The notes under the pieces are model-generated. The model was given only the letters and a program-made list of their open reading frames with translations. It was not told the origin of the DNA and ran no database searches. Below, piece by piece: positions 19,708-62,802 of a stretch of 64,000 bases of DNA (positions within the stretch are counted from its first letter, which is position 1; the number at the start of each line of letters is the position of its first letter). Location of the stretch: assembly GCA_007922225.1 (NCBI GenBank), contig ML679959.1, forward strand, positions 23,968,118 through 24,032,117, in the 5' to 3' direction. A program made the position numbers and the translations under genes. Source of the DNA: Emydura subglobosa (lineage: Eukaryota; Chordata; Testudines; Chelidae).

Positions 19708-20547
19708 TTACGGTAAGAGATCCTTGAGGTCAAAATCTGTCAAGTCCTGGGAGGGGGGTCTGTAACTTTCTGTTATTGGGTTGGTGTCTTCAGACAGATG
19801 AGCTAAAAGATCCTCATTTGTCAGTACTTTGGGTTTGCTAGTAGCTGTTGTGAAGTCTGTGATTGGTTTCCATGGCTTTCCAGGACACTTTGGGACAGAT
19901 GGTTCTGGGAGATCCGGCAACCCGCCAAATGAAAGAATATCAGGAATAATGCCAGTGCTGTCTGGTTCTGCAGGGAGATCAGGGATTTCTGCAGGGAGAT
20001 CAGGGATTTCTGCAGGGAGATCAGGGAACTCAGGAAAACCATCTGTTAGATCTTTTGTGGGCTGAGGAATAGGTAACGCACCTACTTCTACAAGACCAGG
20101 CTTTAAAGATTGTGTACGCAGCCTTTCCTTTTGGTTAGCAACTTCATCATGGCATTCTTCAGAAGACTCATCTTTTGAATATTTATGTTTGCCCTTTATC
20201 TCCTTTTGCTTATCCTTATGTTTTCCATGCCCATGCCCATGTCCACCTCCATGTTTTTCCTCATCTTCATGTTCTGGTCCACGTCTATGTCCATGTTTAT
20301 GCTCATGTCTGGGACCTTGTCTATGTTCACATTCTGGTCCACACCCAATATCATGTCTGTGCCCATGTTTATCCTCACCTCCATGTTTTGGTCCACACCT
20401 AATATCTTTTCCTGGCCCTTTGCCAGGGGCTTGACCTTCTCTAGGCCCCTTTTCATTTTTATTTTGGGGTGTGGTTTGCGTGGCTTTTGCTTCCATAAAT
20501 AGAGATCGGAAAGGAGTCAAGCCTGGAGGCCTTCTTGCCAAAATAGT
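19708..20547 (-). CDS. KNG1: KNG1 exon 10: bradykinin, His-rich D5 and D6 (HMW tail)
   Basis: 840 nt including TAA (19708-19710), 279 residues. It opens TILARRPPGLTPFRSLF: the kinin RPPGLTPFR (20502-20528) is preceded by Arg and followed by Ser. D5 (about 20170-20430) is rich in HGH, HKH and GHGHGHGKHK motifs and has three Cys (RCGP, GCGPEC) not present in human D5. A fourth Cys is in SSEECHDE. A DLPAEIP heptad repeats three times (19970-20033). D6 keeps IPDI and KCPGKPWKPITDF but not the human DDDW. The tail ends FDLKDLLP. No separate low-molecular-weight exon was identified. Confidence 0.95.
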   Translation of the reverse strand, partial: TILARRPPGLTPFRSLFMEAKATQTTPQNKNEKGPREGQAPGKGPGKDIRCGPKHGGEDKHGHRHDIGCGPECEHRQGPRHEHKHGHRRGPEHEDEEKHGGGHGHGHGKHKDKQKEIKGKHKYSKDESSEECHDEVANQKERLRTQSLKPGLVEVGALPIPQPTKDLTDGFPEFPDLPAEIPDLPAEIPDLPAEPDSTGIIPDILSFGGLPDLPEPSVPKCPGKPWKPITDFTTATSKPKVLTNEDLLAHLSEDTNPITESYRPPSQDLTDFDLKDLLP

Positions 20548-44216: not shown

Positions 44217-45280
44217 TCACTGTGAAGATCTAGGTGGAAATAAAGGCAAAAGGTCTGATGTGTCATATTTGGGTTTTCCTGGGCATGATTTTGATTCTGA
44301 AGGGGCTTGTGGAAAAGGCTGAATTGCTGGCTTCTCACTTACACCTTTGCCAAACAGATCATGGGGAGCTGACGGATGATCAGGGAAGTTTGCAGCAGGA
44401 GCTGGGAGGATGTCATGCTGATTTAAAACTGGAACATGATGGATGGATCCAACCTGTCTTTTAGGGAAAGGATGGAGTGTTTGGGATGAAATGTGCTCTT
44501 CTGAGGAGCTGCTCTCATCTCCTCTTTCCTTGGTAGAATTGCTAGACCTCTGACCATGTAGATGGATATGTCTGTGGCCATGTTTGCAACCACGCGGAGG
44601 AGTAGTGGGGGGTCCAACAGGGGAATGGGTTGGACAAGGAGGAGGGGGAGGAAGATGATGTGGTCCATCAGGGGCACCTGGTGGAGGAGGAAGATGAGGA
44701 GGCCCATGTTGGTATTCCTCTCCAGAGAAATTATGATGATGCTCAGATCCTTCAGGGTGTATGACCCTATTTTCAGGAGGTAGTGGGCATCTGTGGTAAT
44801 GTTTATTATGATGTCCAGGCCCAAAGCCATGACGATGATGATATTTGTGATGTGGTCCATCAGGTGGTGGGGGAGGATAATGAGGACCTGGTGGAGGAGG
44901 ATGATGAGGAGGCCCATGTTGGCGTTCCTCTCCAGAGAAATTGTGATGATGCTCAGATCCTTCAGGGTGTATGACCCTATTTTCAGGAGGTAGCGGACAT
45001 CTGTGGTAATGTTTATTATGATGTCCAGGCCCAAAACCATGACGATGATGATATCTGTGATGTGGTCCATCAGGTGGTGGGGGAGGATAATGAGGACCTG
45101 GTGGAGGAGGAGGATGAGGAGGCCCATGTTGGCGTTCCTCTCCAGAGAAATTGTGATGATGCTCAGATCCTTCAGGGTGTATGACCCTATTTTCAGGAGG
45201 TAGCGGGCATCTGTGGTAATGTTTATTATGATGTCCAGGCCCAAAGCCATGACGATGATGATATCTGTGATGTGGTCCAT
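44217..45280 (-). CDS. HRG: HRG last exon (3' part): His/Pro repeats and C-terminus
   Basis: Stop TGA at 44217-44219. The 5' end enters the N gap. It contains two full and one partial 70-residue units with YHHRHGFGPGHHNKHYHRCP, VIHPEGSEHHHNFSGEE and a PPPPPGPHYPPPPPD spacer. A unique HGHRHIHLHGQRSS region, an acidic-Ser segment (DESSSSEE) and the conserved C-terminal block follow. Confidence 0.93.
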
Positions 45281-48200
45281 NNNNNNNNNNTTTACCTATT
45301 AAATCATATATAAAGTGCAAAGAATTATTGGGGCCAGATAGTTCCTTGTAAGCATGGACACCCTCCCTGCATCAGTCTATCAGGCCATTACTCCACTTCC
45401 TTCAAAACCTCCTCAAGATCCATTTTTAGCATTATGTCTACTAGCAATTAGCTTGCTTACTCTGGTTCCCGGTAGGAACAGTTGATATATTCTTCAAAGG
45501 AAAAAAAATCCTTTGAATGTGTGATTTTATCCCTCTCCCCCTCCGTTTGCTTATCTCTTTAGACAGGACTAGAATGACCCTTTGCTCAAAACCCTGAGTA
45601 ATGGGCAGTGTCTGGCTGTGCTGCCCCGGGAGGCAATTGACTGCCCCTCATTCCCCCCTTACTCCTGAGGGACATCATTTACTGCAGATGTTTACAGAGG
45701 GCAGTTGAATGTCCCACTCATGATAGCTACGCTCTGTTGGCCATTGCATTGGGGATGAGGGAGAGTCAAGTTCCCCCCTCTCCCCACATCACTTGCTTGT
45801 ATATGGAGGAGTACTGACCCCTTGGAGCCTACTTTTTCCCTGTCACGTGGACTCATGACCTAGTCATTCCACAAAGGGCATGTAAGAAACACTGGGACAT
45901 ATTGTGAGAATTTACCTTTGTCCCCACCCATTGCAACAATTCGTTCTCCATTGCTCTACTTACAGCATATCTGTTGGGCAGAAATTCACATTCAGACACA
46001 TTTGCATGTGGTGTGGATTTGGCGCAGCAGCTCTCTTTTATAGTAAATTCGACACGGTATCCTGTACGAGGTGCGATCTGGAACAAACAGGCCATATGAA
46101 CATCAAGTGAAAACCTAATGCATTTGAAATATACTTTATCATTTTAAAAATAGCATTAATTTCATTACTGTAGCCCAAATCCCACTCACAGGACTCATTG
46201 ACTAGCTATGCTGTTTTAAGTTTTTGAACGTGCACCCATGGTGAGTAAAGAGTGCCGGATTTGACACTATATTACATAATTCCCTCGCTAATAAATTGTT
46301 TGCATGAGTGTCTGCTTCAGTGTCTGCCATGTGCTGTCTGTCACGTCTCCTGTCCATTTCTTGTCCAAGGTTTGCATTTTCCGAAAGTAAGGCCACTGGA
46401 GTCTTCTCCCTAAGCACAATTTCTACTTTCTTAATAATCCAGAGGCCCACTGAATGGGAGTACTTGTATCCAGTGATGGGAGAATAGGATCCAGAAGTGC
46501 TGATATTAATTTAAGACCAGATTCTGTCACCTCAGTGTTTAACTCACACTGATCAACAGAGTAAGATACAGAGTAAGATACTGCTCAGTATGAGTAAGGG
46601 GGAAGAATCTGGCCCTTGCTCCTGCTGAGATAAAAAACCAAACAAACCTTCTGATTCCAGATTTTCCCATTTTCAATTTCAGCTGAAACACAATGTTATT
46701 TCACCTTTATATTGAGAATTACCTCAGCTAAGGGCTTATCCACACATAAAAGTTACACCAATTTAAATGAATTGGTTAAGAAATTGGTGAAAACCAATAA
46801 GAAAGGTGAGTGGGATTTGGGCTATAGTAATGAAATTAATGTTATTTTTGGTGGATACTCTGATTTCAGACTAAGTACGCTATATTGATTTAACTTAAAT
46901 TGGGGGTGAGGGGGAATTACATTGATATAAAGCATTCAGTCTAAGTAATTAATCCAAAATAAGAGTGTCCACACCAGATTTTTGGAGTGATTTAACTAAA
47001 CTGGATTCTAAACAATGCTTAGACTGTAAGTAGACCAAGTTGAAGTCTAGGGTGAGAACCACATCCCCACTCTAGACCCTTTACACTGGGTAAAAGGGCT
47101 GGGGTAGCATGAGGGGACTTTAAAAGTCCCAATCTGGCCAAAGCAAGGACCCTCAGGCTCAGGCACTGCAAAGACACCTATAAGGATAAGGATGGGGGCG
47201 GAGGGGGAGCCACAGCACTATGGAGTTTCCAAGCAGATTTGTGGCCCAGAGACAGATGCAGTCACTTAGGTCAATGGCTCTCAATCTTTCCAGACTACTG
47301 TACCTTCTTCAGGAGCCTGATTTGTCTTGTGTTACCCCCAAGTTTCACCTCACTTAAAAACTACTTGCTTACAAAATGAGACACAAAAATACAGAAGTGT
47401 CACAGCACACTAGTGCTGAAAAATTGCTTACTTTTGGTTTTTTGCCATATAATTATAAAATACATCAATTGGAATATAAATATTGTACTTATTTTTCAGT
47501 GTATAGTAGATACAGCAGTATGAACAAGTCATTGTCCCTATGAAATTTTAGTTTGTCCTGACGTCACCAGTGCTTTTTGTGTAGCCTGTTGTAAAACTAG
47601 GCAAATATCTAAATGAGTTGATGTACCCCCTGGAAGACCTCTGCATACCCCCTGGTTGAGAACCACTGACTTAGACAATCAGGGCTGCTTATGTCATGCT
47701 AGCGGCTGTGGAGCAGCCTAGAAATGGGGAAGTGCAGAGGTGACTTAAAGCCACTTTATTCCCCCTTTGTCTGGGCTGCACCTCTTAAATTCTGTGCCTC
47801 TCCTTCTAAGGGCCTTCCCTGTATTGCAAACACTAAGTGGCGCTAGGGAATAAATGTACTTTGCTAACATTTTGTTTTTCATATGGGTGAGATATAAACA
47901 CAAAGAATAAAAGGTGGAAAACTTACAATTACTCCAAAGCCATGTGCAAAACTAAAGGCCAGATCCTGCTGTCATTGAAGAGAGTTTTGTCCTTGACTTC
48001 AAAGACAGGAAGATCGGTCCCCATGTTTATTTCAGCATGGCAAACAATCCAGATACTGCAGAGCTGATCACTTATTGCCAGCTGTTCACCCCAAGCTACT
48101 AATGTACATGTTCTTTATTCTCCAACAATTTTAAATCTTAATTGTATATTAAAAAGAATTTTAATTAAAATATTTCTGTAAACAGATTGTTGATAAAAAT

Positions 48201-56714: not shown

Positions 56715-57371
56715 TCACGGCGATACTTCTATTGGTGATATTTTGATAAGCTTTCTGGGAAGCAAAGGGAGGATGATGGAATTAACAAACTTGGGCTCTC
56801 CTGGGCACGTATCTGATTGCGAAGGCCCTTCAGGGAAAGGGAGAATGGCAGGGCCAGTAGCTGGCTTTCTCAAACCTGGCTTTCCTTCTGGCCTGTCTGT
56901 CGGATGCTTTTTCACATCAGCGACACCATCAGTGTCTGGAAGGGCAGGCCCTAGCGTTGCCTTTTCCGGGGGAACGGGCTTTCCATCTATATGCTCAGTC
57001 TGACTTAAGGTGTGGAGGGACACATGCTGCTCTGTAACAGGGAGAACTTTAACCCAACCCACTGTTTTTTCAAGATGTGGGGAGATGTGACTGGCTTCAG
57101 AAGGGGAAGGCTGCTGATGCTCATGTTCGTGGTCCTGCTGATGCTCATGTTCGTGGTCCTGCTGATGCTCATGCTTGTGGTGGTGCTGATGCTCATGTTC
57201 GTGGTCCTGCTGATGCTCATGCTTGTGGTGGTGCTTGTGGGGATGCTTGTGGTGGTGCTGGTTCCCCTTCCTTCTAGGGTGATGAGGGTGTTCATGGCTT
57301 TCATCGTCATCTTGATCAGGTTTTTCAGATTTACGGCCAGGATGCCGCTTCTGGTCTCCAGTGGCAGGCGC
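56715..57371 (-). CDS. FETUB: FETUB exon 7: His-rich tract and C-terminus
   Basis: 657 nt with TGA at 56715-56717. After the acceptor TTTAG it reads APATGDQKRHPGRKSEKPDQ, an acidic DDDESHEH, then about 50 residues of HHHK, HEHQQ and DHEHEHQ units (57113-57258) with some 24 His. EKTVGWVKVLP, VADVKKHPTDRPEGKPG and ILPFPEGPSQSDTCPGEPKF follow. The overlapping frame with many Ser-Ile-Ser-Thr repeats is an alternative reading of the same repeat and lacks domain support. Confidence 0.92.
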   Translation of the reverse strand, partial: APATGDQKRHPGRKSEKPDQDDDESHEHPHHPRRKGNQHHHKHPHKHHHKHEHQQDHEHEHQHHHKHEHQQDHEHEHQQDHEHEHQQPSPSEASHISPHLEKTVGWVKVLPVTEQHVSLHTLSQTEHIDGKPVPPEKATLGPALPDTDGVADVKKHPTDRPEGKPGLRKPATGPAILPFPEGPSQSDTCPGEPKFVNSIILPLLPRKLIKISPIEVSP

Positions 57372-60300
57372 CTAAATTGGCAAACGACAAACACACACAT
57401 GTACTGAAGGTATTTAAAAACCTTTCTCTGATATAAAGAAAGACTCAGACTTAGTCTCTACTCAGAATCAGTCCAAATTCCAGCAGCTGCACCAGTGCAA
57501 AATCCTATGGTAGACAAGCAAAGCAGCTGCAACACACGGGGGGAGATTACCCGTGCTTGGAATCAGGGTCATTCAGCTATTTCTTAATTTCTCTCTTCCT
57601 GTAGTTTTATTATGCTGGTCGCTTTAATTCTGTAACTGTATTATTTTCAATTACTTTGTAAAATGTTTGATACAATTTGTTTTAATGACTATGGGGTATG
57701 TCTATACTGTGGTCTGACGTGTGACTGCAGCAGGACGACACATAGCTAAGCTCTCTTTGATTTAGCTAGCTTGAATAACAATAGCAGTGAAACCCTGACT
57801 ACATGGGCTGTATAAGCCTGCCCAGGATCCTGGCAGTCGCTTGCCAGAAATTGTATTGTACTGTCTTTTTTCCAGTGATCTTATCACAAGTGAGTTTCTT
57901 TCTGATTTGGCCTATACATTTCCATTATGCATGCAGTCTGTTTCTTTGTGGATAACAACACCACAGAATGATCAGCCTTTATTAATTCCACTTTTAATTT
58001 ATAAAGGACCATTTTGAAAAATGTTAATCAGATGAAGAAATACCTGTGGATCATAGATTTGGCAGGATATGCTGACAAACTGCTGATGATCAATTTGGCT
58101 TTTCGTTACAGAACCTTTGCAGAAACCAGTATGCTGGAAAAATAAATGGCTAATTAGGACAAGTGAGCATCAAGCCACATTGCGTCACTAATATTTAGAT
58201 CCTATGATTGTAAAATAGGAGATTCTGAAAGTCCAAACAGATTTAGCTCCACAAATACATCTGCATATATGTATAGCTAGTACAAACTTTTGATTTTGGG
58301 GCTGGCAAAGTTACCTAGGAGGACAGATTTCCCAGATGAATATTTTATTTCTGAGTAGGGTTAGCTGACATGATGGTAAAAATGCTGGCAGCCCCATGTG
58401 CCCCATTTATGCTAACTCTCTTGTTAATACCAGTGTGGCACTGCTTTGGTGATGGCGGACACTTTTAGAAAATGCCACTAGAGGCAAGGTCTATAAAAGA
58501 ATATTAGATAACGGTTCTCAGAGAAAAAAAATTCTCTTCACACGGATCAAGAAAACCATGCTAGAATACTGAGAGTAACAACTGTGGGCTTGTCTACATG
58601 GTACCACAGTCCCCACTACAGGAGTGTGAATTGTAGAGAGTTCTATCAGGTTGCTGTCTAACTTCCCCATGTGGACCCTGCTGGTGTGAACTAAAAGGTA
58701 TCTAGTACATGTGCATGTAGTCCTGTTTGGAATGGGACCACATCAGTGCAAACTAGGTATCTTTGGGTTCATGCCAGTAGGATCTACATTGGGCAATGAG
58801 AATGCAACACTTTTTTCACAGCCCTGTAGTATGAATTGCAGCCATGCAGACAAGCCCTAGATTGACATATGCTGTTAGATAGTACAGTTCTAATCTCAGC
58901 GCAGACAGAGGTTGAGAGAACAGAATCCATTAGTTTATATGCTAATTTAACCTTTCAACTGGTCTTGTCTTGAAGTTCCTTCCTCTAATTCCTAAAGGTT
59001 TTCTTTATTTGACTTCTTGAGCACAATGTGCATATATTGTGTATGCATTCTTTATAATTTGTTATTTGTGACTGCTTATACAGAAGAAGCCCGTGAGAAC
59101 TAATAACTTTTGCAAAGCACTAGCTACTCTGCTTATTCTATACTGTATTTTTCTATGCCATCCGTGTTCATACACTTCTGGACAGTTATCCAGAACTTTG
59201 TCTGGGATACTTTCTCTATCTTGTCTTAGATGGTAAACTCTTTGGGGCAGGAACTGTTTTAGTTCTGTGTTTGTCCAGCCCCTAGCATGATGGGAGTCTA
59301 ATCCAGGACCGGGGCTCTGAGGTACTACAGTAATACAAATAATAAATAATAATCATATATAAATATATATATATATAGGGCTTGATCCAAAGTCCAGAGA
59401 AGTCAATGAAAAGACTCCCATTGACTTCAGTGGACTTTGGATCATGTTCATAAAGAAAAAAACAAAAAACAAAACAGAAGGGGATATGCAAAATGCTTAA
59501 TGCAAAATCATAATATCCACAATATGTATTTTTACAAACAGAATTACTTACTGCCAATTCAGGTGAGAGGGACTTGCACTTGGAGACATCAGCAATGGAT
59601 TCATTTTTGGAACAGGTTGTCTCCTGAATTGTAAACTCTACGAAGTGTGAAGGACCAACGACCCACTGTCAACGTTTTGTATGTAAGGAGAGAGAGAGAG
59701 CATTTAGTGTTATTGTTAGCCTTTGCAAATGTGCCAGCAAGAGAAAAACAAACTCATAATCCCAATCCTGCACCCTTTGCATTGAATGCAAAACTCCCAT
59801 GAACAACAGAGGGAGCAACGTTAGACTTCTGAGTTTGTTAGCTGTATTGCAGGAGATACATTTTCTATGTTCTTTGAATGCTGCCCTACAACCTGATCCT
59901 TACCTTTGATACAGAATTCCCACTGAAGTATCCCTCTAGCTCATGCATCAGTCAAAGCTGAAACCAGATTTAAATGCTTTTTTCTTTCATAGAATATTAG
60001 GGTTGGAAGGGACCTCAGGAGGTCATCTAGTCCAACCTCCACCCTCCCAGTATTCTTTGAAATATTATTAATAATTGTTATTTCCCCAGAGCTTTTCATC
60101 CAAAGATCCTCACTGTGGCTCAACAAACTTTTTATCTATAGGAATCACTTGACCCAGTCCTGAAATGCAGCCACTTCTGGGTTGGAATGTGGAAAAATGT
60201 AAACAGCACCAAGTAACATTACACAACCATTACAGAGACTATCCAGTTTAAATTAATTTTAGGAAGGCAAGATATAATTGTGAGGCCCAAATGGAATTTA

Positions 60301-62802
60301 GCCAGGACACTGATAATTAGCACCTCCTCACTGTGCAATGAGATTTTAAATTATTTTAAGATAATTTGGCGAGTTACAGGTGTGCATAGAAAAGGACATC
60401 CATGCTACACTAAGTACTTTACCATATGGGCCTTTTGCTAGAGCCAGGCCTGAATCAAAAGCCCAGATTGGAATACCACTGAACTATGGAACTCAAATCT
60501 AGATCTGAATTTTGCAAATGGCCTTGCTCTCTCTAATAAGCTGAATCAAAGCCCCAGATCTACAAAGCCTCAAACTTTGCAGGGTTCAGAATCCTACCCT
60601 GACCCAGCCGTTGGTGCTCAAGCCCATCTCTGCACCTGACACAGCAACCTGTAAAACATTCAGAAGTTGTATCAATGCTTCCCAGGGCCTAGAATGAGCC
60701 GTATGAATCTCAGCCTTACCTGCATTGAAGCTTTGGTGACATTGAGGACAGAAAAATAATGAGCTTGCTCACTTTCCTTGTTGAATTTGGCCAAGCTCAC
60801 AACAGCAGCTTCCAAATACTTGGGCTCAGTTGGACAGTCAGGGACTGGACAGTCAGGGCATAGCCTTAAAAATGAGCTTGATGGAACTTGTAGAAAAGAA
60901 CAAATACAAGCTGATAAGACAGGCTTCAAAGCACTATGGTCACATTGACAGACATGTGTCGGTAGGTAGGTATACAATTATTTCTTTCTTATTTATCTTT
61001 TTAGGGTTTCAAGCCCCAGCCACACACATGCTCTTGGCATTTCACAGAATTTCTAACAACAATATTTAATACAGAGATTATAGCCATTGATATAGTAGTT
61101 AAACTGTCATGTGACTCTCCTCACATGAATCAAACCCCACAAATCCAACTCATGAGCCCACCCCATCTCCAAACATTGAAGGCTTAGTTCACTCCAGAGA
61201 CTGCTGGCTTTTGCTGAGGCAGACACCCTCAGAGTTCTCCTGCCAGCTGCTTGGAGAGAGGTTGCAATGGCACAAAGGGCCCAGAATCCCTGCTCTGCTT
61301 GGTAGCCAGCCAAAGAAAGCCTTTCCATTTGGCTGAGCTGGCCAGGAAGGGGCACGTAGCCAGGACACCCAGAGGATGGTTCAGCACATCTATTGGGCAC
61401 CCTCCATCAGCAGGGCTTCCTTAGAGCAACAGATGTACTTTAAAGCTTGGAAACCAGAGAGAAGACAGCGGTGCAACACCACTTGCATGTCCTTCAGGGA
61501 TGCCTCCCATGCGTCCCTCACACACACCATTCCCCCTCCACAGGGGGCTGTGGTCCTTGCCCGCAGTTTGCACCCCCAGCATCAATGGGGGAAAATAAAA
61601 CACAGAGATTTTAACTTATTGAGAGATGTGAATAGTTGAGCGCAAACCATAACGTTCCAATATGGGTATTTGGTTCAGCCCATTATGGATCTGGGGTCAG
61701 TCAGGAAGGTCAGTTCTAGATCCAGACATCGGCAAAGTTCAGGAGTGTTTGTATCTGGGTTTTTGGCGGACTCATCTCAGGTGTGAAAAGTCTATTAGGG
61801 CAGATGCTTCAAAGGGAATGAAGAGATACTGGGAAGAGGGTCTCTCCAAAAGCATGGAGTTCAGGGGGAGAGAAGGAAAAGAAGGAGCATCATCCTGATG
61901 GATTTCCCACAGAACAAGAAAAATGTGAAAAATATCCCTGAAGAGAGGTGACATAAAAGAACATTTAGGGATGGGAGTTTTGCCTGAATATGGGTGAAGG
62001 ATCTCACCTACTCTTGTTTAGCAGAAACAGCATGGAAGAACACTAACAATTCTGGGGAGTTTGCTGCCCCATGTCCATTGCTGTCCATGTCATATTGATT
62101 ACCAGAGGATACATGCTGGAAATAATGATAATGCATTTCATTTTTATGCAGCATCCTAGGTGCTTTGCAGAAATATTCAGTAATTTTCTCATATTGAAAT
62201 ATGAGAAGCAATGTGTCTAGTGATTAAAGCAGGAAACAGAGAGTGAGGAGAAAAGGGTTCTACACGCAGCTCTGCCACCAACTAGCAATAGGACCTTAGA
62301 TAAATTGCTTAGTCTTCCTTCTTAGTCTCTTTCCCTAATGGTAAAATTGGGATTATGATATTTAGCTGCTTTTGTAAAACATTGGATGAAAGGAGCTGTG
62401 TAGATGCAAAGGGGTTGCATCATATTCAAAGTACCATGCCAAATACAGATATAAAAAAATCTTTCATCCTCTTTTCAGTTCAAAGGATGGGACCTTTCTA
62501 ATTATGACGTGTACCCATGTTGGCCCTAAAAGTCCTCAAGATCAAAAACCTGTATCTTTCTGACCTGAGAAGGTGAGTTAGGGCAGACGCCATTGAGAGA
62601 AAAACAACATGAAACATCATGATGCCATTGTTAGTCACTTTTCAGAGTAGAGCCACACTTGAAGCATTCTCCTCCAATCCTTTATTATAACAAACCAAGT
62701 AAGTAATAACATACCTGGCTGTAACGTGCACTCATAGCTACGCAGGTGAACAATTCTCCTTGGCTTGTTAATGTAGAGGATTGCTTTACACTGTCCAAAA
62801 AC
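56715..62802 (-). CDS. FETUB: FETUB, fetuin-B, exons 3-7 (5' exons beyond the window), with His-rich insert
   Basis: Secreted liver plasma cystatin-like protein; in mammals it inhibits astacin metallopeptidases such as ovastacin. Exons: 62715-62802, 60720-60886, 59552-59665, 58044-58133, 56715-57371. Phases join (0,+1 base, 0, 0, 0). Exon 3 VFGQCKAILYINKPRRIVHL matches human VYGQCKAIFYMNNPSRVLYL; exon 4 has the CPDCP linker and EAAVVSLAKFNKESEQ; exon 5 WVVGPSHFVEFTIQE; exon 6 GFCKGSVTKS. The last exon (218 residues) encodes an unexpected His-rich tract, then EKATLGPALPDTDG and SDTCPGEPKFV. Sequons are NVT (exon 4) and NES (exon 5); the human NCT of exon 3 is lost (YECT). AHSG is the alternative paralogue, but WVVGPS and CPDCP point to fetuin-B. 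Confidence 0.92.
57113..57258 (-). repeat. 24-bp tandem repeat encoding HEHQQDHE / HEHQHHHK
   Basis: On the plus strand the unit CTGCTGATGCTCATGTTCGT recurs with 24-bp spacing. Variants alternate GTGGTCC (Asp) and GTGGTGGTG (His) endings. Confidence 0.9.
57693..57842. mobile_element. Half MITE of the GGGTATGTCTATACTG family, FETUB intron 6
   Basis: Starts GGGGTATGTCTATACTGTGG and continues into TGTGACTGCAGCAGG and TTTGATTTAGCTAGC as in the copy at 13096, but the right arm is missing. Confidence 0.5.
58044..58133 (-). CDS. FETUB: FETUB exon 6: second cystatin end
   Basis: 90 nt encoding HTGFCKGSVTKSQIDDQQFV and SISCQIYDPQ. Human reads VGLCKGSLTRTHWEKFVSVT at this place. Confidence 0.93.
58586..58858. 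mobile_element. MITE with GGGCTTGTCTACATG termini, FETUB intron 5
   Basis: GTGGGCTTGTCTACATGG at the left mirrors CCATGCAGACAAGCCCTAG at the right; inner CACTACAGGAGTGTGAAT pairs with CCCTGTAGTATGAATTG. Confidence 0.6.
59378..59445. mobile_element. Mini foldback element after an (AT)n tract, FETUB intron 5
   Basis: Left arm CTTGATCCAAAGTCCAGAGA, right arm CAGTGGACTTTGGATCATG, with AAGTCAATG / CATTGACTT at the centre. The stem is nearly perfect. Confidence 0.65.
59552..59665 (-). CDS. FETUB: FETUB exon 5: second cystatin middle
   Basis: 114 nt encoding WVVGPSHFVEFTIQETTCSK and NESIADVSKCKSLSPELA. Human reads WVVGPSYFVEYLIKESPCTK. Confidence 0.95.
59985..60048 (-). mobile_element. CR1 LINE 3' terminus, minus orientation, FETUB intron 4
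   Basis: CATAGAATATTAGGGTTGGA, AGGGACCTCAGGAGGTCATC and TAGTCCAACC are the reverse of the CR1 end at 41630-41711. Confidence 0.8.
60720..60886 (-). CDS. FETUB: FETUB exon 4: linker and second cystatin start
   Basis: 167 nt encoding PSSSFLRLCPDCPVPDCPTE, then PKYLEAAVVSLAKFNKESEQ and AHYFSVLNVTKASMQ. A 15-bp tandem duplication (60831-60860) doubles the PDCP of the linker. Acceptor CAAG, donor GTAAGG. Confidence 0.95.
62215..62405 (+). mobile_element. MIR-like SINE, FETUB intron 3
   Basis: GTCTAGTGATTAAAGCAGG, GTTCTACACGCAGCTCTGCC, then GGTAAAATTGGGATTATGAT show the tRNA-derived head and MIR core. Confidence 0.6.
62715..62802 (-). CDS. FETUB: FETUB exon 3: first cystatin end
   Basis: 88 nt encoding VFGQCKAILYINKPRRIVHL and RSYECTLQP plus one base. 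Acceptor TTAG, donor GTATGT. Same length and phase as HRG exon 3. Confidence 0.94.

What the first reader, a model, noticed from the sequence alone, without database searches (positions are those of the whole stretch)
57113..57258. Fetuin-B with a long histidine-rich domain
The in-frame last exon holds about 24 His in 50 residues built from 24-bp repeats. Mammalian fetuin-B has no such tract. All three paralogues in this cluster therefore have a His-rich last exon, which suggests either an ancestral feature lost in mammalian FETUB or repeated gain. It predicts Zn/Ni/heparin binding by this fetuin-B.
Basis: partly seen in the sequence, partly recalled or inferred. Interest (0 to 1): 0.75.

Follow-up and report, generated by a model that had tools for sequence, protein, structure and literature searches.

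The report
Histidine-rich tail of turtle fetuin-B
A turtle blood protein, fetuin-B, carries a long histidine-rich tail that is also found in relatives from fishes to crocodiles but is missing in the birds and placental mammals examined.

Summary
On the minus strand, the last coding exon of a seven-exon FETUB gene (482 aa) encodes 24 His in 50 residues at 57113-57258; the whole tract is 57111-57296 (28 His in 62). The gene is a typical fetuin-B: two cystatin domains, CPDCP trunk, QWVVGPS hairpin, CPG anchor, beside AHSG and HRG. The 24-bp repeats look like a recent expansion in an older His-rich segment. The survey favours 'ancestral and lost' over 'gained repeatedly'. At least 10 His per 50 occur in 7 of 7 other turtle rows, a crocodile, 22 of 29 squamate, 15 of 16 amphibian, 9 of 9 long teleost and 3 of 4 lobe-fin rows, but in 0 of 44 bird and 0 of 120 placental rows. 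Against this, short fetuin-B-like rows lack it (28 of 29 fish, 6 of 6 snake). In the aligned tails it sits before a G-x-V-x-x-L-P motif that birds and placentals keep. Metal binding is likely but untested; heparin binding at blood pH is doubtful here. No passage seen describes a His-rich fetuin-B; one paper calls such a region unique to HRG, another describes one in snake fetuin-A.

The parts
57111..57296 (-). His-rich tract of fetuin-B (28 His in 62 residues), 24-bp units reading HKHEHQQD / HEHEHQQD
56715..57371 (-). FETUB exon 7 (218 aa plus stop): His tract, G-x-V-x-x-L-P motif, PFP...CPG anchor
58044..58133 (-). FETUB exon 6 (end of CY2)
59552..59665 (-). FETUB exon 5 (CY2, WVVGPS part of the hairpin)
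60720..60886 (-). FETUB exon 4 (linker with CPDCP trunk, start of CY2)
62715..62802 (-). FETUB exon 3 (end of CY1); exons 2 and 1 lie beyond the window in locus L009 (at 64564-64454 and 67620-67399 if the window count is carried on)
44217..45280 (-). HRG last exon (partial, beside an assembly gap): His/Pro-rich 210-bp repeats, then VG...P and PFP..CPGKPK anchors like those of FETUB
19708..20547 (-). KNG1 last exon: bradykinin match below the Pfam cut-off, His-rich stretch (14 per 50), CPGKPWK anchor

Best explanation
This is the fetuin-B gene of a turtle, probably a side-necked turtle, and its tail keeps a His-rich segment that was already present in the fetuin-B of the common ancestor of bony vertebrates. 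The segment was lost on the way to birds and on the way to placental mammals, and is missing or shrunken in some fish and snake relatives. In this species it was recently lengthened in frame by 24-bp units. Likely mechanism: the two cystatin domains and the CPDCP trunk inhibit astacin-type metalloproteases (known for mammalian fetuin-B), while the flexible His tract, held between the CY2 end and the CPG tail that is disulphide-linked in mouse fetuin-B, is a separate low-specificity site for Zn2+ and similar ions that turns strongly basic when His is protonated, so it could tether the inhibitor to polyanions in a zinc- or pH-dependent way, as the His-rich domain of HRG does. Shown here: gene, frame, position and distribution. 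Inferred: disorder, metal binding, tethering.
For: Seven-exon GT/AG model, 482 aa. The five best solved structures are all fetuin-B: 7uai, 6saz, 7auw, 6hpv, 6ht9. Two cystatin stretches. Order AHSG-FETUB-HRG-KNG1 on one strand. Distribution counts. Tree: window sister to Pelusios (100/96), birds and placentals each one clade; minimum 4 changes of tract state. Flanking motifs shared by tract-bearing and tract-less proteins, so a deletion explains the birds. Core motif H[LM]H.[HY]E[HQ]HH in 26 of 343 proteins: 9 of 9 long teleost rows, 12 of 16 amphibian rows, both coelacanth rows, paddlefish as a relic, and two further rows. The human fetuin-B tail is dispensable for astacin inhibition (PMC6789097, passages). 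The HRG His-rich domain binds heparan sulfate in a zinc-dependent way (PMC4101493, passages).
Against: Repeat units differ between snakes, geckos and teleosts, so part of the length is local regrowth, and a low-complexity tract can arise more than once. 'Ancestral' rests on position, flanks and a core motif that I defined after seeing the sequences and that caecilians, lungfish and all named amniotes lack. Lungfish has only 10 His per 50, an unnamed lungfish-like row 9, paddlefish 5-6. Of 29 fish rows under 395 aa 28 lack the tract, as do 6 of 6 short snake rows (that search selected short proteins by design); some species, such as Pseudorasbora and Denticeps, have both a long and a short gene. 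No binding or expression datum for this gene. No named marsupial was sampled. The structure prediction did not run.
Confidence: 0.75

Rival explanations
1. Repeated gain: tails of type-3 cystatins are free of structural constraint, and CAY-rich repeats grew independently in FETUB, HRG, KNG1 and AHSG and several times within FETUB.
For: Units differ between lineages and the window's 24-bp units are young. Short repeats expand easily. Many short fish and snake relatives have none.
Against: Same place before G-x-V-x-x-L-P in nearly all of the 21 aligned tails; a shared core motif in most non-amniotes, with 3 of 13,000 shuffled tails showing it; 4 changes suffice on the tree.
Confidence: 0.18
2. 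Neutral slippage product: the tract is a tolerated repeat with no binding role, kept only because the tail is dispensable for protease inhibition.
For: The tail is dispensable for inhibition in human fetuin-B. The richest window varies from 12 to 27 His per 50 among turtles and crocodile. Birds and placentals do without it.
Against: His is kept through large changes of repeat unit and spacer residues in most sampled groups from long teleost genes to turtles; both CAC and CAT codons are used in this tract (15 and 13).
Confidence: 0.2
3. The locus is a non-expressed or diverged paralogue rather than fetuin-B.
For: No RNA from this species. The search of the genome for other copies of the exon did not complete; cystatin matches on other contigs were not examined.
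Against: Intact reading frame and splice sites, motifs kept, synteny, sister to Pelusios fetuin-B with 88% identity over the cystatin part.
Confidence: 0.03

Closest known systems
Mammalian fetuin-B (PDB 7uai, 6saz, 7auw, 6ht9)
   Same: Two cystatin domains, CPDCP trunk, QWVVGPS hairpin, G-x-V-x-x-L-P and PFP..CPG tail motifs
   Different: Tail roughly 90-100 aa shorter and without His tract (0 of 120 placental rows reach 10 His per 50)
Histidine-rich glycoprotein (HRG)
   Same: Paralogue next door; His-rich segment before similar VG...P and CPG anchors in the last exon
   Different: FETUB tract has no GHHPH repeats and little Pro; FETUB keeps the CPDCP trunk, where window HRG reads CPGRP
Kininogen-1 domain D5
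   Same: His-rich part of the last exon before a CPG anchor
   Different: Three cystatin modules (PMC6400186 passage) and bradykinin; different surroundings of the tract
Snake fetuin-A (habu serum factor)
   Different: Product of fetua genes, relatives of AHSG (PMC9907073 passages); inhibits snake venom metalloproteases

Membership tests
Fetuin-B (FETUB) | Two tandem cystatin domains | tested here: met
   PF00031 with 2 stretches, 80 bits, cut-off 22.2
Fetuin-B (FETUB) | CPDCP trunk between CY1 and CY2 | tested here: met
   LCPDCPVPDCP in exon 4
Fetuin-B (FETUB) | QWVVGPS hairpin of CY2 | tested here: met
   Identical to the solved fetuin-B in the alignment
Fetuin-B (FETUB) | C-terminal CPG tripeptide that links to CY1 | tested here: met
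   SDTCPGEPK present; Cys and Pro of the anchor invariant in 36 of 36 aligned homologues, window not among them; disulphide itself not tested
Fetuin-B (FETUB) | Place between AHSG and HRG | tested here: met
   tblastn order in the contig; the human order, and the names HRG and KNG1 given to the neighbours, rest partly on recall
Fetuin-B (FETUB) | Inhibits astacin metalloproteases | not testable with these tools
   needs protein
HRG | GHHPH repeats | tested here: not met
   None in the tract sequence; consensus taken from PMC12751054
HRG | Zn-dependent binding of heparan sulfate by the His-rich domain | not testable with these tools
   needs peptide or protein
Kininogen | Bradykinin sequence in the last exon | tested here: not met
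   No Pfam match at E up to 1 for FETUB exon 7

The most novel reading that the evidence does not exclude
Fetuin-B, not HRG, is the older histidine-rich plasma glycoprotein: a His-rich tail arose in fetuin-B or an earlier type-3 cystatin, HRG inherited its hallmark region from that ancestor, and in many living vertebrates the circulating astacin inhibitor is itself a zinc- and pH-switched tethered protein, a property that birds and placental mammals lost separately and left to HRG and kininogen.
Probability: 0.3. Interest if true: 0.65.

Novelty: new variant of a known kind. Interest (0 to 1): 0.45.

Why it matters
The fetuin-B papers seen here concern mainly mammals, where it guards fertility by restraining ovastacin, and treat its tail as dispensable for inhibition. 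If a common vertebrate form carries a metal-binding His tail, mammals and birds are the exceptions. The 'unique' region of HRG then has a wider history, and plasma fetuin-B of turtles or fish should come out on nickel columns beside HRG, so nickel-purified HRG from non-mammals may need re-checking.

Tried and rejected
Rejected: chance (no shuffle reached the observed density); wrong frame; a gene other than fetuin-B. HRG nested inside fetuin-B: the AU test did not tell it from HRG outside (p 0.471), and the HRG and AHSG branches are long. Marsupials and monotremes: none among the named rows of the three protein searches; a 2009 survey (PMC2784779, passages) lists fetuin-B as present in Metatheria and absent in platypus. 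Sharks: none among the named rows; the same survey lists fetuin-B as absent there. HRG exon 6 was not found; an assembly gap of 10 N lies at 45281-45290. Checks of the neighbours' names by solved structures did not clinch them: HRG exons match fetuin-B best and HRG (4ccv) at 5e-6, KNG1's last exon matches nothing and its first exon matches fetuin-B. Structure prediction never ran. On re-checking I counted the short fish and snake rows and lowered the leading reading from 0.78 to 0.75 and raised repeated gain from 0.15 to 0.18.

Rows left out: three rows of the 69-row table (Pleurodeles kininogen-like, Ascaphus P0113, Rhinophrynus) were dropped before the tree because their cystatin limits were cut wrongly. 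In some searches I assigned groups by the names in the listings; unnamed rows (P0034, P0037 with birds, P0101 with lobe-fins, those among P0121-P0237 with placentals, P0314, P0322, P0323, P0329, P0333 with fishes) went by similarity. Seven rows are in no group count: P0070, P0074, P0076 (3-5 His per 50) and P0075, P0095, P0102, P0112 (17-29). The 106 rows seen only are counted: 29 fish, 6 snake, 3 others and 68 bird rows, the last all without the CPG anchor and so silent about the tail. Two of the four lobe-fin rows are the same coelacanth. The placental rows include splice isoforms and two entries named after bacteria (P0137, P0237), which I take for mammalian contamination. The HRG figure does not exceed shuffles (1450 of 2000 reach it), because that exon is His-rich throughout; for AHSG 11 of 2000 shuffles reach it.

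Full report
What was checked. The window is C24:23968118-24032117 of a 1.93-Gb assembly. The gene of the finding runs on the minus strand. The exon that covers 57113-57258 reads APATGDQKRH... to a stop at 56715. Shuffling the exon-7 peptide 20,000 times never gave 24 His in 50. Tandem Repeats Finder reports 24-bp units at 89% and 48-bp units at 94% match, multiples of three bases.

Gene model. Two exons lie beyond the window, so 40 kb of the neighbouring contig were fetched. Seven exons with GT/AG at all junctions give 482 aa. I chose the exon-1 donor GTAAGG from four that kept the frame; the sea turtle protein stops at the same place. Against solved structures the five best matches are fetuin-B (E 1.3e-62 to 7.7e-72). 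The alignment shows CPDCP and QWVVGPS in place. Pfam finds two cystatin stretches. tblastn with sea turtle proteins shows four type-3 cystatin genes in a row on one strand. I call them AHSG, FETUB, HRG and KNG1: AHSG from its match to the first half of a Chelonia record of that name, HRG and KNG1 from their place, the His/Pro repeats, and a bradykinin match of 17.7 bits that is below Pfam's cut-off of 20.7. Solved structures do not settle the last two. In a tree of the cystatin part of 68 proteins the window sits with the side-necked turtle Pelusios (100/96), so the animal is probably a side-necked turtle.

Survey. Three protein searches gave 343 proteins (each lists at most 120 rows, of 206, 370 and 129 found). 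Counting the richest 50-residue window of each protein, with groups assigned by me, at least 10 His are found in 7 of 7 turtle rows, 1 of 1 crocodile, 22 of 29 squamate, 15 of 16 amphibian, 9 of 9 teleost rows of 455 aa or more and 3 of 4 lobe-fin rows (two of them the same coelacanth), but in 0 of 44 bird and 0 of 120 placental rows. Seven squamate rows fall below 10 (P0055, P0069, P0081, P0082, P0088, P0096, P0105); two of these have the CPG tail anchor and five do not, so the five may be incomplete. The amphibian row below 10 is 295 aa long.

Results against my reading. The third search, whose short query admits only proteins up to about 390 aa, listed 29 fish rows of which 1 has the tract, and 6 short snake rows of which none has it. 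These are mostly a separate short gene: Pseudorasbora (P0119 and P0328) and Denticeps (P0110 and P0342) appear with both a long and a short one, and in the tree three short fish proteins form their own branch beside the long ones and paddlefish. Paddlefish has only a relic, and lungfish only 10 His per 50. So the tract is common but not universal outside birds and placentals.

Homology or repeated gain. An alignment of 21 tails shows one layout in nearly all: CY2 end, His tract, G-x-V-x-x-L-P motif, PFP...CPG anchor. Lungfish and one caecilian are poor at the middle motif. In birds and placentals both flanks are there and the tract is not, which is what deletion predicts. A core H[LM]H.[HY]E[HQ]HH occurs in 26 of the 343 proteins: 9 of 9 long teleost rows, 12 of 16 amphibian rows, both coelacanth rows, paddlefish (HLHAHEQHH, though it has little else of the tract), and P0095 and P0112. 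No named amniote, caecilian or lungfish row has it. Shuffled tails gave the motif in 3 of 13,000; I defined the motif after seeing the sequences, so this is not a clean test. On the gene tree the presence or absence of the tract needs at least 4 changes (short rows and paddlefish scored as absent). I conclude that the His-rich tail is old in fetuin-B and was lost separately toward birds and toward placental mammals, while the repeat units turn over quickly within lineages. The 24-bp array of the window is such a recent expansion: Pelusios has His-rich sequence there but no such repeat.

Paralogues. The richest 50-residue windows of the last exons in this genome are FETUB 24, HRG 14 (in an exon that is 18% His throughout and is cut by an assembly gap), KNG1 14 and AHSG 11. 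HRG shares with FETUB the VG...P and PFP..CPG.PK....LPL.P tail. Whether HRG arose from within fetuin-B is not resolved (AU p 0.471).

Transcripts in relatives. Three tract-bearing proteins come from contigs of only 1.4-1.8 kb (P0075, P0095, P0102), too short for a gene that here spans about 11 kb. I infer that these are spliced transcripts, which would show the tract expressed in frame in other species. I did not see the contigs themselves.

Mechanism. Human fetuin-B inhibits astacins only slightly less well without most of its tail (PMC6789097, abstract and passages), so the tract should add something else. The His-rich domain of HRG binds heparan sulfate with zinc (PMC4101493, passages), and that region of HRG is disordered (PMC12751054, passages). 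By analogy, zinc-type metal binding is likely here: 19 HxH pairs in 62 residues. The computed charge of the window tract is -3.9 at pH 7.4 and +9.2 at pH 6.0, so binding to heparin at blood pH would need zinc. In Emys, Carettochelys and Crocodylus the tract is already slightly positive at pH 7.4. All of this is inference.

Literature. Ten searches of the open PMC library were made. I saw their listings and, for ten papers, passages; none was read whole. No passage seen describes a His-rich tail in fetuin-B. PMC10388577 (passages) calls the His- and Pro-rich regions unique to HRG. [quoted passage not shown] PMC2784779 (passages) dates fetuin-B to bony vertebrates and HRG to tetrapods and lists platypus as lacking fetuin-B. 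Lee et al. 2009 on type-3 cystatins, cited in these papers, was not read and may mention fish tails; most subscription papers are not held.

Verdict. The feature is widespread outside birds and placentals rather than special to this locus. It matters mainly as an overlooked property of many vertebrate fetuin-Bs and as a constraint on where HRG's hallmark came from.

Noticed in passing
window 44676-45280 (-): HRG last exon is built of 210-bp units (2.9 copies, 97% alike) of His/Pro-rich sequence; an assembly gap of 10 N at 45281-45290 cuts the gene and exon 6 was not found.
   Followed up: partly
AHSG last exon, about 72736-72311 if the window count is carried on (locus L009): Fetuin-A of this turtle is His-enriched before its CPG tail (11 per 50), as snake fetuin-A is described to be.
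   Followed up: partly
window 60886-60720 (-): The trunk reads CPDCPVPDCP, a near-duplicate of the CPDCP element; Eretmochelys has the same, Emys and Chelydra CPDCPVPGCP.
   Followed up: no
P0114 (Mixophyes), P0311 (Ascaphus): Frog proteins named fetuin-B-like or hypothetical may be HRG orthologues: Mixophyes groups with window HRG at 96/95, though long branches meet there; P0311 was compared by eye only.
   Followed up: partly
P0119/P0328 (Pseudorasbora), P0110/P0342 (Denticeps): Some teleosts have a long fetuin-B gene with the His tract and a short one without it.
   Followed up: partly
P0137, P0237: Database entries named Yersinia pestis and Salmonella cystatin proteins have mammalian fetuin-B sequence, probably host contamination.
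   Followed up: no
window 19966-20027 (-): KNG1 last exon has three exact 21-bp units encoding an EIPDLPA-type repeat.
   Followed up: no
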